Shown piece by piece: positions 2,910-19,409 of a DNA stretch of 59,088 nucleotides. A model generated the notes under the pieces. The model was not told the DNA's origin and made no database searches. It was given only the letters and a program-made list of their open reading frames with translations. The first letter of the stretch is position 1. Every line of letters starts with the position of its first letter. Source of the DNA: an uncultured Solirubrobacteraceae bacterium (GTDB taxonomy: Bacteria; Actinomycetota; Thermoleophilia; Solirubrobacterales; Solirubrobacteraceae); NCBI GenBank assembly GCA_902806205.1, contig CADCVR010000065.1, positions 1-59,088 on the forward strand, in the 5' to 3' direction. A program made the translations under genes and the position numbers.

Positions 2910-3395
2910 GTGGCGGCGCACGTCGATCACCTGCTCGACTCGTTCGAGGCGGCCTGGACCGCCCGCGACCCGTCGGCGTTCTACGCGATGTGCGCCCCGG
3001 ACGTGCACTACGAGGACCCGTTCTGCGGTGCGCCGCTCGAGGGGCCGGGGGCGATCGGCAAGCACGCGGAGCGGCTCTGGGCGGGCTTTCCCGACGTGCG
3101 CGCGGACCGCTCGGGCGAGCGGCTGACCGACGGGCGCTACGTCGCGGCGCCGGTGAAGCTCGTGGGAACCAACTCGGGTGAGCTCGAGGGGCTGCCGCCG
3201 ACCAGGCGCTTCGTCGTCGTCCAGTTGCTCTTGTACTGCGAGCTCGGCCCGCGGGGCGACGAGCTGTTCCGCGTCCGGGCGTTCTGCGACCGCTACGAGG
3301 CGGCGATGCAGCTCGGCCTGCTCCCCAAGCCCGGGACGCTCGGCGAGAAGGCGCTGCTGGCCCTGCGCGGCTTCGGGCTCACTCCTCGACGGTGA
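2910..3395 (+). CDS. SnoaL-like / NTF2-fold protein
   Basis: About 161 residues, cytosolic. It has the SnoaL-like alpha+beta barrel pattern: an N-terminal helix (DHLLDSFEAAWTARDP), then YEDPFCG, a helix with WAGFPDVRA and later strands ending in FCDRYEAAMQLGLLP. Substrate unknown; SnoaL relatives are polyketide cyclases, epoxide hydrolases or non-enzymatic. GTG 2910 lies 5 bases after the thiG stop, so it may be transcribed with the thiamine genes. Its last codons lie in a 32-bp direct repeat (3370-3401). In that repeat they are antisense to the C-terminal codons of the cupredoxin gene now found 1 kb away at 4417. Confidence 0.75.
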   Translation: MAAHVDHLLDSFEAAWTARDPSAFYAMCAPDVHYEDPFCGAPLEGPGAIGKHAERLWAGFPDVRADRSGERLTDGRYVAAPVKLVGTNSGELEGLPPTRRFVVVQLLLYCELGPRGDELFRVRAFCDRYEAAMQLGLLPKPGTLGEKALLALRGFGLTPRR

Positions 3396-3401
3396 GCGTG
3401 C
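3370..3401. repeat. 32-bp direct repeat, left copy
   Basis: Perfect 32-base match to 4408-4439. This copy contains the end of the SnoaL-like gene. Read on the other strand it also encodes the last codons and stop of the cupredoxin (TLTVEE), so before the insertion the two convergent genes probably overlapped here. Confidence 0.9.
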
Positions 3402-3413
3402 GTTCGTGATGCG

Positions 3414-3431
3414 TTGATGCGGTAGCATCAA
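3414..3431. promoter_or_regulatory. Probable VapB autoregulatory operator
   Basis: Perfect inverted repeat TTGATGC-GGTA-GCATCAA immediately before the antitoxin start at 3436. Two extra TGATGCG half-sites flank it (near 3407 and at 3434-3440). Toxin-antitoxin pairs usually bind such palindromes to repress their own promoter; the assignment is inferred from symmetry and position. Confidence 0.6.
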
Positions 3432-3435
3432 GTTG

Positions 3436-3657
3436 ATGCGAACGACGCTCGAGCTCGACGACGATGTCGTTGCCGCTGCGCGGGAGCTCGCCGCGCTCGA
3501 TCGGCGCTCGCTCGGGTCGGTCATCTCTGAGTTGGCCAGGCGCGGGCTGACGCCGGCCCGGATCGTCGCCGAAGGCGGGATGCCCGTCATCCGGGTTCCT
3601 GAGGGCAGCCCACCGATCACACCGGAGATGGTTCGCCGCGCCCTCGACGAGGACTGA
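3436..3657 (+). CDS. vapB: VapB-type antitoxin
   Basis: About 73 residues. It begins MRTTLELDDDVVAAARELA, the ribbon-helix-helix DNA-binding pattern of VapB-like antitoxins, followed by SLGSVISELARRGL and a proline-rich C-terminal tail (PEGSPPITPEMVRRAL) that would wrap the toxin. ATG 3436 is preferred to the adjacent TTG at 3433. It ends 2 bases before vapC, and a palindromic operator lies just upstream. It lies inside the repeat-bounded insert, where codon use is visibly less GC-biased than in the neighbours. Confidence 0.85.
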   Translation: MRTTLELDDDVVAAARELAALDRRSLGSVISELARRGLTPARIVAEGGMPVIRVPEGSPPITPEMVRRALDED

Positions 3658-3659
3658 GC

Positions 3660-4082
3660 ATGGCGCTGCTGGACGTCAACGCGTTGGTGGCGCTTGCCTG
3701 GGACTCCCATGTCCATCACGCTGTCGTTCGGTCGTGGTTCGCGGCCGCGGCAGAGCGCGCCTGGTCGACGTGCCCGGTCACGGAGAGCGGGTTCGTTCGC
3801 GTCTCGTCGAACCCGAAGGTGATCTGCGCAGCGATCAGCGTTGACGACGCTCGTCTGGTGCTCACGGCGCTGCGTCGGCGCCCCGGGCATCGGTTCCTCA
3901 CCGACGACGTTTCGCTGGCGGACTCCGACGTCCCGGTCGTCGTCGGCCACCGGCAGGTCACCGACGCCCATCTGCTGGTTCTCGCCCGTCGACACGGCAC
4001 TCGCCTGCTGACCTTCGACGGCGGTGCCGCGGCGCTGGCCGGTGACCGTGAAGGTGATGTGGAGCTGCTCTCGGCGCTATGA
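3660..4082 (+). CDS. vapC: PIN-domain ribonuclease toxin VapC
   Basis: 140 residues with the PIN fold: acidic D5 in MALLDVNALVALAW, then the TESGFVRV strand (E), the GHRQVTDAHLL helix (D) and the TFDGG motif (D). These give the four-acid metal site used to cut tRNA or rRNA. The HVHHAVVRSWF and SGFVRVSSNP signatures match the VapC subgroup common in actinobacteria. It follows vapB by 2 bases, so the two are co-transcribed and the toxin is normally held inactive by the antitoxin. More T-ending codons than in neighbouring genes support horizontal origin. Confidence 0.87.
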   Translation: MALLDVNALVALAWDSHVHHAVVRSWFAAAAERAWSTCPVTESGFVRVSSNPKVICAAISVDDARLVLTALRRRPGHRFLTDDVSLADSDVPVVVGHRQVTDAHLLVLARRHGTRLLTFDGGAAALAGDREGDVELLSAL

Positions 4083-4198
4083 GCCGTGCGGGGCTGCGGG
4101 TCACCCCCTCGACCGTGGAAGTCCGGGCACTGTGTCGTCGCAACCCGCCACGACGAGGTCGGCTGGAAGAGGCACCCAGCGGGTGCGACGCTACCGCC

Positions 4199-4388
4199 GT
4201 GAGCGAGACCCTTCCCGTGTTCCCGTATCACCCCGACCCCCGGGCCACGGAACCTGTCGTGCCGTCGGACGAAGCCTGAGCAGGTCGAGGGCTACCTGGA
4301 GTCGCTGGACAAGGACGACCAGCCCACGGCCTACCTCTTCGAGTGCCGCCACTGCGGCACGCATCTTGCCTACTCCGACTTCACCTAG
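4199..4388 (+). pseudogene. CbrC-family (UPF0167) remnant with internal deletion
   Basis: Both ends of a CbrC-type protein are present but the middle is gone. The first frame (GTG 4199) reads VSETLPVFPYHPDPRATEP and stops at 4277-4279. A different frame then reads EQVEGYLESLDKDDQPTAY, continues LFECRHCGTHLAYSDFT and stops at 4386-4388. These match the characteristic start (LPxFxYHPDPxAT) and end (YLFxCxHCGxxLAYSDF) of the family, which is normally about three times longer. The junction near 4270 fuses the two out of frame. It lies inside the 32-bp repeat-bounded insert with vapBC. Confidence 0.75.
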
Positions 4389-4407
4389 CCGGTCGTCTGG
4401 TCAGGTC

Positions 4408-4439
4408 GCTTCGGGCTCACTCCTCGACGGTGAGCGTGC
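4408..4439. repeat. 32-bp direct repeat, right copy
   Basis: Perfect match to 3370-3401. Here it is the functional 3' end of the minus-strand cupredoxin gene. Together the two copies bound about 1.0 kb of foreign-looking DNA. Confidence 0.9.
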
Positions 4440-4788
4440 CCGCCATGCCGGGGTGGATCGTGCAGACGTACTTCACCGTTCCGGGCTTCTCGGCCTTGTA
4501 CTCGTAGGTTCCGTCTTTGCCGAAGGTGTCGGACTGGAACTCGGCGCCCTCCTCGGCGACGACGTTGTGCGGGATGTCCTCGTTGTTCTTCCAGGTGACC
4601 GTGGCGCCGGCCTTCACCGTGGCGTCCTTGGGCTGGAACTGGAGCCCCTTCATGCCGATCTCGACCCCGTTGCCCGCGGCGGACGGCGTGGCGGCGGGCG
4701 GGTCGGCCGCGGTGTCGGAACCGTCGTTGCCGCAGCCTGCGACGGCGAGCGCGGCCGCGGTGAGCGGGGCCAGGAGGAAGCGGCGCAT
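4417..4788 (-). CDS. Cupredoxin-domain lipoprotein (plastocyanin-like)
   Basis: 123 residues. A lipoprotein signal ends in AVAGC (lipidated C19), followed by a low-complexity linker and one cupredoxin domain. The copper ligands are visible: H74 (DIPHN), C109, H112 and M115 (YVCTIHPGM), so a type 1 blue-copper site is expected on the outer face of the membrane. Likely a small electron carrier. It ends GTLTVEE within the right-hand 32-bp repeat. Confidence 0.88.
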   Translation of the reverse strand: MRRFLLAPLTAAALAVAGCGNDGSDTAADPPAATPSAAGNGVEIGMKGLQFQPKDATVKAGATVTWKNNEDIPHNVVAEEGAEFQSDTFGKDGTYEYKAEKPGTVKYVCTIHPGMAGTLTVEE

Positions 4789-7880: not shown

Positions 7881-9263
7881 ATGGACCAGACCGCCCCCGC
7901 CCCCGACGTCGATCCGTCCGCGCGCCCGCCGCGCCCCGAGCGCGGCCAGGAGGTCGAGGTCACCGTCGACCGGCTGGCCTACGGCGGCAACGGCGTCGCC
8001 CGCCACGACGGCTACGTCCTCTTCGTCCCCGGGACGTTTCCGGGCGATCGGATCCGGGCGCAGGTCACCAAGCGCAAGCGTGCCTACGGCGAGGCGCGGC
8101 TGCTCGAGGTGCTCACCCCGAGCGCCGACCGCATCGCGCCCGTCGCCCACCACCCGGGCGTCGCGTGGCAGGTCCTGCCCTACGAGAAGCAACTCGCCAT
8201 CAAGGCCGAGCAGGTGCACGACGCGCTCACCCGGATCGGCCACCTCGAGGGCTTCGTCCAGGAGCCGATCGTCGGGGCCGAGGAGCAGTGGGGGTACCGG
8301 AACAAGCTCGAGTACTCCTTCGGCACTTCGGGAAGCGGTTCGCTCGTCTGCGGCTTCCACGCGCCCGGCTCCTGGGAGGACATCGTCGACGGCGTCTCCG
8401 AGCTCGGCTCCGATCGCCTGGCGCGCGCCCGCGAGGAGGTCCTCGCCTTCTGCCGCGCCCAGGGCCTCGAGGCCTACGACCGCCGCGCGCAGGCCGGCTT
8501 CCTGCGCAACCTCGTCCTGCGCGAGGCGCGGCGCACGGGCGAGACGCAGATCCGGCTCGTGACCTCCCGTGGCGAGCTCGACACCGTCGCCTTCTCGCAG
8601 GCGGTGGAGGCGACGTCGCTCGTCTGGACGCAGATCGACCAGGTCGGCGAGACGACCACGGGCGGCTACTCAGAGCTCGTGGCCGGGCGGGAGACGATCA
8701 CCGAGGAGCTCGGCGGGCTCGAGTTCTCCATCAGCCCCGAGGCGTTCTTCCAGACGAACACCGAGATGGCCGAGCAGCTGTACGCCGTCGCCCACGAGTA
8801 CGCGGGCCTGCAGGGCTGGGAGCGCGTCTACGACCTGTTCTGCGGCATCGGCACGATCGGCCTGACGCTCGCGCGGCGCGCCGGGGAGGTCTGGGGCCTG
8901 GAGATCGTCGAGCCTGCGATCGCCGACGCGATCGCCAACGCGCGCCGCAACGAGGTCGAGAACGCGCGCTTCTTCGCCGGGGACGTACGCCTCGCGCTGC
9001 GCGAGCTCGTCGAGACGGCCGGACGGCCGGACGTGCTCGTCGTCGACCCGCCGCGCGCCGGCCTCTCGCAGAAGGTCGTGCGGCGCGTCATCGAGGCCGG
9101 CCCGAAGCGGATCGTCTACGTGTCGTGCAACCCGACGACCCTCGCACCGAACGCGGCCCAGCTCGCCGAGGCCGGGTACGCGCTGAAGCAGGTCCGGCCG
9201 GTCGACATGTTCCCGCAGACGCCGCACATCGAGTGCGTCGCGCTGCTGGAGCGCGGACCGTGA
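7881..9263 (+). CDS. TrmA/RlmD-type RNA (uracil-5-) methyltransferase without Fe-S cysteines
   Basis: 460 residues: an N-terminal TRAM domain (QEVEVTVDRLAYGGNGVARH), a central domain, then the methyltransferase core with FQTNTEMAEQL, YDLFCGIGTIGL (SAM motif), VVDPPRAGL and VSCNPTT, whose Cys is the catalytic nucleophile. It would make 5-methyluridine in 23S rRNA or tRNA. Odd point: where RlmD-type enzymes have a CxxC-type [4Fe-4S] site before the YexQL helix, this protein reads HHPGVAWQVLPYEKQLAIK with no cysteines. ATG 7881 is closely preceded by a G-run ribosome site. Confidence 0.85.
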   Translation: MDQTAPAPDVDPSARPPRPERGQEVEVTVDRLAYGGNGVARHDGYVLFVPGTFPGDRIRAQVTKRKRAYGEARLLEVLTPSADRIAPVAHHPGVAWQVLPYEKQLAIKAEQVHDALTRIGHLEGFVQEPIVGAEEQWGYRNKLEYSFGTSGSGSLVCGFHAPGSWEDIVDGVSELGSDRLARAREEVLAFCRAQGLEAYDRRAQAGFLRNLVLREARRTGETQIRLVTSRGELDTVAFSQAVEATSLVWTQIDQVGETTTGGYSELVAGRETITEELGGLEFSISPEAFFQTNTEMAEQLYAVAHEYAGLQGWERVYDLFCGIGTIGLTLARRAGEVWGLEIVEPAIADAIANARRNEVENARFFAGDVRLALRELVETAGRPDVLVVDPPRAGLSQKVVRRVIEAGPKRIVYVSCNPTTLAPNAAQLAEAGYALKQVRPVDMFPQTPHIECVALLERGP

Positions 9264-19301: not shown

Positions 19302-19409
19302 GCGCACGCGGGAAGGAGGCATGGCCGGGCGACTACTCCCCGGGGCGTACGTCAGGTTGCTCCCGGCGGCCGATGTGCGCAGAAACCTCTGTGCGATGCT
19401 TTGATCCTC

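What the first reader, a model, noticed from the sequence alone, without database searches (positions are those of the whole stretch)
3370..4439. VapBC/CbrC insert bounded by perfect 32-bp direct repeats
The 32-base sequence at 3370-3401 recurs exactly at 4408-4439. It encodes the end of the SnoaL-like gene on one strand and the end of the cupredoxin on the other, so these two convergent genes were probably adjacent and overlapping before about 1 kb arrived. The insert carries vapBC with its own operator and a deleted cbrC copy, with less GC-biased codons. No transposase or integrase is inside. A 32-bp duplication is long for a transposon target; it may mark a recombinase-independent or trans-mobilised defence cassette.
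Basis: partly seen in the sequence, partly recalled or inferred. Interest (0 to 1): 0.8.

Follow-up and report, generated by a model that had tools for sequence, protein, structure and literature searches.

The report
Toxin-antitoxin pair inserted with 32-bp duplication
A self-contained toxin-antitoxin gene pair (vapBC), with a broken gene scrap behind it, landed between two end-to-end genes of an actinobacterium and copied 32 bases of the landing site on arrival, without any transposase or integrase of its own; this is a clean but not unprecedented example of selfish gene pairs moving by themselves.

Summary
The 32-base sequence at 3370-3401 recurs exactly at 4408-4439 and nowhere else in the 3.38-Mb assembly. 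Relatives carry the empty junction: in the nearest congener (G005) the two flanks, joined over one 32-bp copy, align in one piece (498 of 503 bases, 84%), with 29/32 identity in the repeat and the same overlapping SnoaL/cupredoxin ends. So about 1,006 bp was inserted and 32 bp of target duplicated. The insert is a complete vapBC module plus about 325 bp with an internally deleted cbrC. Homology to vapBC modules elsewhere starts 5 bp inside the insert, at a conserved operator. There are no terminal inverted repeats, transposase or integrase. Of 84 homologous vapBC modules, two more sit tightly between 41-44-bp direct repeats, one a duplicated tRNA-Arg 3' half; the rest show none. [quoted passage not shown] Best explanation: capture of foreign DNA at a staggered break, then retention by toxin addiction. 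Main rival: recombinase-type (att) integration in trans. 'Defence cassette' and a dedicated trans-mobilised family are not shown.

The parts
2910..3395 (+). SnoaL-like gene downstream of thiG; its last codons and stop lie in the left repeat copy
   Evidence: PF07366 E 1.3e-11; conserved thiG-SnoaL-cupredoxin order in relatives
3370..3401 (.). left copy of the 32-bp direct repeat (duplicated target)
   Evidence: exact repeat; only two places in the genome; single copy in empty site of G005, 29/32
3402..4407 (.). inserted DNA, 1,006 bp, GC 68.5% against 72.2% for the window, single copy in genome, no terminal inverted repeats
3407..3430 (.). conserved vapBC operator/promoter: TGATGC-GT-TGATGC-GGTA-GCATCA; homology to the vapBC relatives begins here; TAGCAT at 3423-3428 lies 7 nt before the vapB ATG (possible leaderless promoter, inferred)
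3436..3657 (+). vapB antitoxin (73 aa)
   Evidence: VapB_antitoxin E 9.1e-5, just under Pfam cut-off, RHH-like; conserved next to vapC in homologs
3660..4082 (+). vapC toxin (140 aa), PIN domain; acidic residues D5, E42, D102, D120 invariant with relatives
   Evidence: PF01850 E 5.5e-10; alignment A2
4199..4390 (+). internally deleted cbrC (UPF0167) remnant: N-terminal ~25 codons, then out of frame C-terminal ~36 codons
   Evidence: PF03691 positions 138-174; full-length homologs for comparison
4408..4439 (.). right copy of the 32-bp direct repeat
4417..4788 (-). cupredoxin (plastocyanin/azurin-like); its last codons and stop lie in the right repeat copy
   Evidence: PF00127 E 1.1e-13

Best explanation
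Shown: a 1,006-bp foreign segment was inserted once into the overlap of two convergent genes, and 32 bp of that overlap was duplicated, leaving both genes whole. Inferred mechanism: an incoming linear DNA fragment carrying vapBC and a damaged cbrC was joined into a chromosome break with offset cuts about 32 nt apart, and filling-in of the overhangs duplicated the target (illegitimate, end-joining-type capture, 'insertion with long target duplication'). The junction is a safe landing site because nothing is interrupted. The module needs nothing from the host site because its operator/promoter lies 5 bp inside the insert and vapB probably starts leaderless. It is then held by addiction: recombination between the two 32-bp copies could restore the empty site exactly, but losing vapBC would free the toxin. 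The insert works as an ordinary VapBC pair: VapB binds the TGATGC operator and the PIN-domain ribonuclease VapC; degradation of VapB releases VapC.
For: Empty site with one copy in the nearest congener and uninterrupted junctions in four more. Both copies are identical and share all three bases that differ from G005, as expected if both derive from the host's own target and not from a foreign attP. Identity stops abruptly on both sides of the repeat. No terminal inverted repeats, transposase or integrase. The insert is a chimera, a vapBC known across actinobacteria joined to a deleted cbrC found next to no vapBC homolog, which looks like a random fragment. Ku is encoded in the genome. Other genes sit in the same junction in other genera: HicB-like in G012, a DHH-type gene in G033, so the junction tolerates insertions. 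Touzain et al. found 10-18% of small variable segments flanked by direct repeats, mostly under 30 bp, and ascribe much of this diversity to illegitimate recombination (PMC2884548).
Against: No LigD was found next to Ku and the genome was not searched for it. A 32-nt stagger is long and no sequence shows end joining directly. The repeat overlaps gene 3' ends, a usual preference of tyrosine integrases, and a vapBC homolog in L155 lies between tRNA-type att repeats. Toxicity, operator binding and addiction were not tested.
Confidence: 0.5

Rival explanations
1. Site-specific integration: the 32-bp copies are attL/attR of a tyrosine-type recombinase acting in trans, and the insert is a mini-element or the remnant of a larger integrative element whose body was lost while the toxin-antitoxin pair was kept.
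For: Length and position at gene 3' ends are typical of att sites. In L155 the homologous vapBC sits between tRNA-Arg(ACG) and a second tRNA-Arg 3' half, 41 bp, with a compensated T-stem change (C-G to G-C), an att signature without an integrase in the 7-kb locus; in L177 a 44-bp repeat (2 mismatches) brackets vapBC. These are far above the null maximum of 14. L155's genome has several integrases elsewhere.
Against: Both copies in the window are identical and carry species-specific bases of a poorly conserved coding overlap; the site is not a tRNA; the partial dyad in the repeat is as good in 16% of random 32-mers; no match to the repeats in viral contigs; no second copy in the genome; 82 of 84 vapBC homologs lack such repeats.
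Confidence: 0.33
2. Transposition of a non-autonomous element with a 32-bp target duplication.
For: Target duplication around a small insert.
Against: No terminal inverted repeats (longest match of the two ends 7 bp); 32 bp is longer than target duplications of ordinary DDE transposons (own knowledge; IS1202-type reaches the high twenties); one copy only.
Confidence: 0.06
3. The occupied state is ancestral and relatives lost the insert by recombination between the repeats.
For: Direct repeats allow precise excision (inference).
Against: Congeners and several other genera all carry the adjoining or overlapping convergent pair, and vapBC homologs elsewhere sit in unrelated contexts.
Confidence: 0.03
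4. Assembly artefact (chimeric join or duplicated read ends) in a draft, probably metagenome-derived assembly.
For: 108-contig assembly; reads not available.
Against: A 32-bp repeat is shorter than a read; the insert occurs nowhere else in the assembly as a source for a false join; both flanks match the empty site exactly at the repeat.
Confidence: 0.04

Closest known systems
Insertion with long target duplication of restriction-modification systems (Nobusato et al. 2000, Furuta et al. 2010; described in PMC1643837 and PMC3874152)
   Same: Selfish, addictive gene pair without its own transposase inserted at a site that is single-copy in relatives, with a long direct duplication of the target
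   Different: Here a type II toxin-antitoxin pair, 32 bp and not of the order of 100 bp, in an actinobacterium; the cargo includes a broken gene
Toxin-antitoxin genomic islets such as ccdO157 in E. coli (PMC2654758)
   Same: A toxin-antitoxin pair that alone forms a small island between conserved genes
   Different: I did not find a report of a long target duplication for these in the papers searched
tRNA-targeted integrative elements and their remnants
   Same: Direct repeats covering gene 3' ends; seen around the vapBC homolog in L155
   Different: No integrase, not a tRNA gene, perfect repeat from a poorly conserved coding overlap
VapBC of the Mycobacterium/Geodermatophilus/Solirubrobacter type (VapC mostly 64-72% identical)
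   Same: Same gene order and PIN residues, and the same operator in the relatives aligned
   Different: None of functional note; only the landing site differs

Membership tests
VapBC type II toxin-antitoxin | PIN-domain toxin with conserved acidic residues | tested here: met
   PF01850 over cut-off; D5, E42, D102, D120 invariant
VapBC type II toxin-antitoxin | small DNA-binding antitoxin gene directly upstream | tested here: met
   73-aa ORF 3436-3657, VapB_antitoxin E 9e-5 though just below Pfam's cut-off, conserved with vapC in homologs
VapBC type II toxin-antitoxin | toxicity neutralised by antitoxin | not testable with these tools
   needs expression
Insertion with long target duplication | empty site with a single copy in relatives | tested here: met
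   G005 and four other congeners
Insertion with long target duplication | direct repeat longer than ordinary transposon duplications, flanking the cargo exactly | tested here: met
   32 bp exact
Insertion with long target duplication | no transposase or integrase and no terminal inverted repeats | tested here: met
   insert ORFs and ends
Tyrosine-recombinase att-flanked element | integrase gene within the element | tested here: not met
   none in the 1,006-bp insert
Tyrosine-recombinase att-flanked element | core-type inverted arms in the repeat | tested here: inconclusive
   partial dyad, equalled by 16% of random 32-mers
Tyrosine-recombinase att-flanked element | circular form or attP elsewhere | tested here: inconclusive
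   no match in viral contigs or elsewhere in the genome; no strains or reads
DDE transposon or MITE | terminal inverted repeats | tested here: not met
   longest end-to-end match 7 bp
Integron cassette | GTTRRRY core and attC | tested here: not met
   insert begins GTTCGTG, which does not fit the core; attC not sought further

The most novel reading that the evidence does not exclude
vapBC modules of this family move as minimal integrase-less cassettes that are repeatedly inserted with 30-50-bp direct repeats at gene 3' ends, using host or resident recombination enzymes in trans, and are fixed by addiction.
Probability: 0.15. Interest if true: 0.65.

Novelty: new member of a known kind. Interest (0 to 1): 0.4.

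Why it matters
How toxin-antitoxin pairs get into chromosomes without a visible vehicle is an open question. This locus is a clean event with both edges, the empty site and the duplicated target preserved, and there are two further bracketed homologs, so the mode of entry (end-joining capture or recombinase in trans) can be tested directly. It extends to a toxin-antitoxin pair a pattern described for restriction-modification systems.

Tried and rejected
Other copies of the insert or repeat in the genome: none. Long direct repeats near other PIN genes in 427 kb of the genome: only gene duplications, an IS-linked 164-bp repeat and an unexplained 49-bp pair, none like this. Donor of the cbrC scrap: the genome's own CbrC on contig 43 is a different subfamily, only 4 of 399 class genomes have CbrC, matches are about 63-72% at DNA level, and plasmids gave weak hits only. 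attP in viral contigs: none for the three repeats. vapBC in viral contigs: none. Dyad in the repeat: not significant. First genome-contig scan with the cupredoxin found nothing. Empty site for L177 could not be searched. The exact 19-bp repeat in L154 was dismissed as a coding repeat far from the module.

Full report
Observation. The window carries an exact 32-bp direct repeat at 3370-3401 and 4408-4439. Searching the whole assembly at up to 3 mismatches gives these two places only. The SnoaL-like gene (2910-3395) ends in the left copy, the cupredoxin (4417-4788, minus) in the right copy. Between them lie vapB (3436-3657), vapC (3660-4082) and a tail with a cbrC remnant. Third-position GC is 0.82 and 0.81 in vapB and vapC and 0.82 in the tail, against 0.92-0.95 in thiG, SnoaL and the cupredoxin.

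Empty site. SnoaL follows thiG in most relatives, and in many the cupredoxin is next, convergent. In the nearest congener, G005 (SnoaL 82% identical), the sequence ...GGCTTCGGGCTCAGCCCTCGACGGTGAGGGTGCCC... holds one copy, 29 of 32 bases alike, with the two gene ends overlapping as they would have in the window before insertion. The two flanks of the window joined over one copy align to G005 as a single piece, 498 of 503 bases at 84%; four further congeners also align across the junction in one piece, whereas the window's own genome gives two pieces. Insertion with a 32-bp duplication is therefore shown, as far as assembled sequence can show it. The junction is not empty everywhere: G033 has a gene reading as a DHH-type phosphoesterase there (named by eye from its sequence) and G012 a HicB-like antitoxin gene (PF15919), neither with flanking repeats. 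It seems a tolerant landing place.

The insert. A search of 399 class genomes shows vapBC homologs (68-76% DNA identity) in 21 others; most alignments begin at base 3-8 of the insert and end near the vapC stop. The common start is the operator TGATGC-N2-TGATGC-N4-GCATCA, conserved in the six relatives aligned, while upstream sequence is unrelated. TAGCAT lies 7 nt before the vapB start codon with similar spacing in relatives, which suggests a leaderless promoter (inference). VapC keeps D5, E42, D102 and D120. VapC relatives also occur in Mycobacterium, Geodermatophilus and Gaiella. The tail holds the first ~25 codons and the last ~36 codons of a CbrC (UPF0167) protein with the middle gone and the frames out of step. 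CbrC is rare in the class (4 of 399 genomes) and is not next to any of the vapBC homologs examined. The ends of the insert share no inverted repeat (longest match 7 bp).

Are other vapBC modules bracketed? In 84 distinct homologous modules with flanks, the best flanking direct repeat was at the level of unrelated pairs (null maximum 14 in 250 pairs) in nearly all, with one weak case of 16 and two clear exceptions. L177 (Gemmatimonadota MAG): 44 bp, 2 mismatches, 820 bp apart. L155 (Thermoleophilaceae MAG): 41 bp, 3 mismatches, 816 bp apart, where the left copy is the 3' part of an intact tRNA-Arg(ACG) and the right copy a tRNA-Arg 3' half whose T-stem carries a compensated pair change, so it probably comes from another tRNA gene: a classic att-type duplication, without an integrase in the 7-kb locus. 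In 979 kb of sequence only 11 such repeat pairs occur at 600-1,400 bp spacing, and three of them bracket vapBC. My rough estimate from the eight others is about 0.2 expected by chance around 84 modules, so two is suggestive, not strong. The sample was gathered by vapBC homology, so it says nothing about other gene pairs.

Mechanism. The perfect identity of both copies, including three bases that differ from the sister species in a poorly conserved coding overlap, with abrupt loss of similarity outside, fits duplication of the host's own target better than import of a foreign attP. The chimeric, partly broken cargo fits capture of a random fragment. Ku is encoded, though LigD was not sought genome-wide. 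Against this stand the location at gene ends and the att-type L155 case, so recombinase integration keeps about a third of the weight. The function of the cargo is taken as that of VapBC in general; nothing here bears on phage defence.

Known background. Restriction-modification systems, which are addictive gene pairs, insert with long target duplications (Nobusato 2000, as described in PMC1643837 and PMC3874152). Toxin-antitoxin pairs forming islets on their own are known (ccdO157; PMC2654758). Small variable segments flanked by direct repeats are common in well-sampled species, with most repeats under 30 bp (PMC2884548). The searches of the held papers found no vapBC case with a long target duplication, but subscription papers are missing from that library. 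In Sulfolobus islandicus vapBC pairs are mostly flanked by degenerate IS copies (PMC3718332), a different situation.

Verdict. A real, recent-looking insertion of a toxin-antitoxin module with a long target duplication; a clean new member of a described kind, with the entry mechanism still open between end-joining capture and recombination in trans.

Noticed in passing
L155:2403-3291: vapBC between tRNA-Arg(ACG) and a second tRNA-Arg 3' half with compensated T-stem change; IS3-type transposase-like fragment just beyond
   Followed up: partly
L177:3620-4483: vapBC bracketed by a 44-bp direct repeat with 2 mismatches, left copy in the 3' part of an open frame
   Followed up: partly
L014 (G012), between SnoaL and cupredoxin: HicB-like antitoxin gene in the same junction, no flanking repeat
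   Followed up: partly
L030 (G033), between SnoaL and cupredoxin: gene reading as a DHH-type phosphoesterase in the same junction, no flanking repeat
   Followed up: partly
L119:6947-7108 and 8392-8553 (own genome, contig 87): 164-bp direct repeat, 91%, around a MarR-like and a cupin-like gene, next to an IstB-like remnant
   Followed up: no
L120:18841-18889 and 19326-19374 (own genome, contig 21): 49-bp direct repeat, 92%, 485 bp apart, unexplained
   Followed up: no
own genome, contig 43:25990-26505 (L065): full-length CbrC of another subfamily, absent from the 60 relatives searched; a transposase-like gene lies nearby
   Followed up: partly
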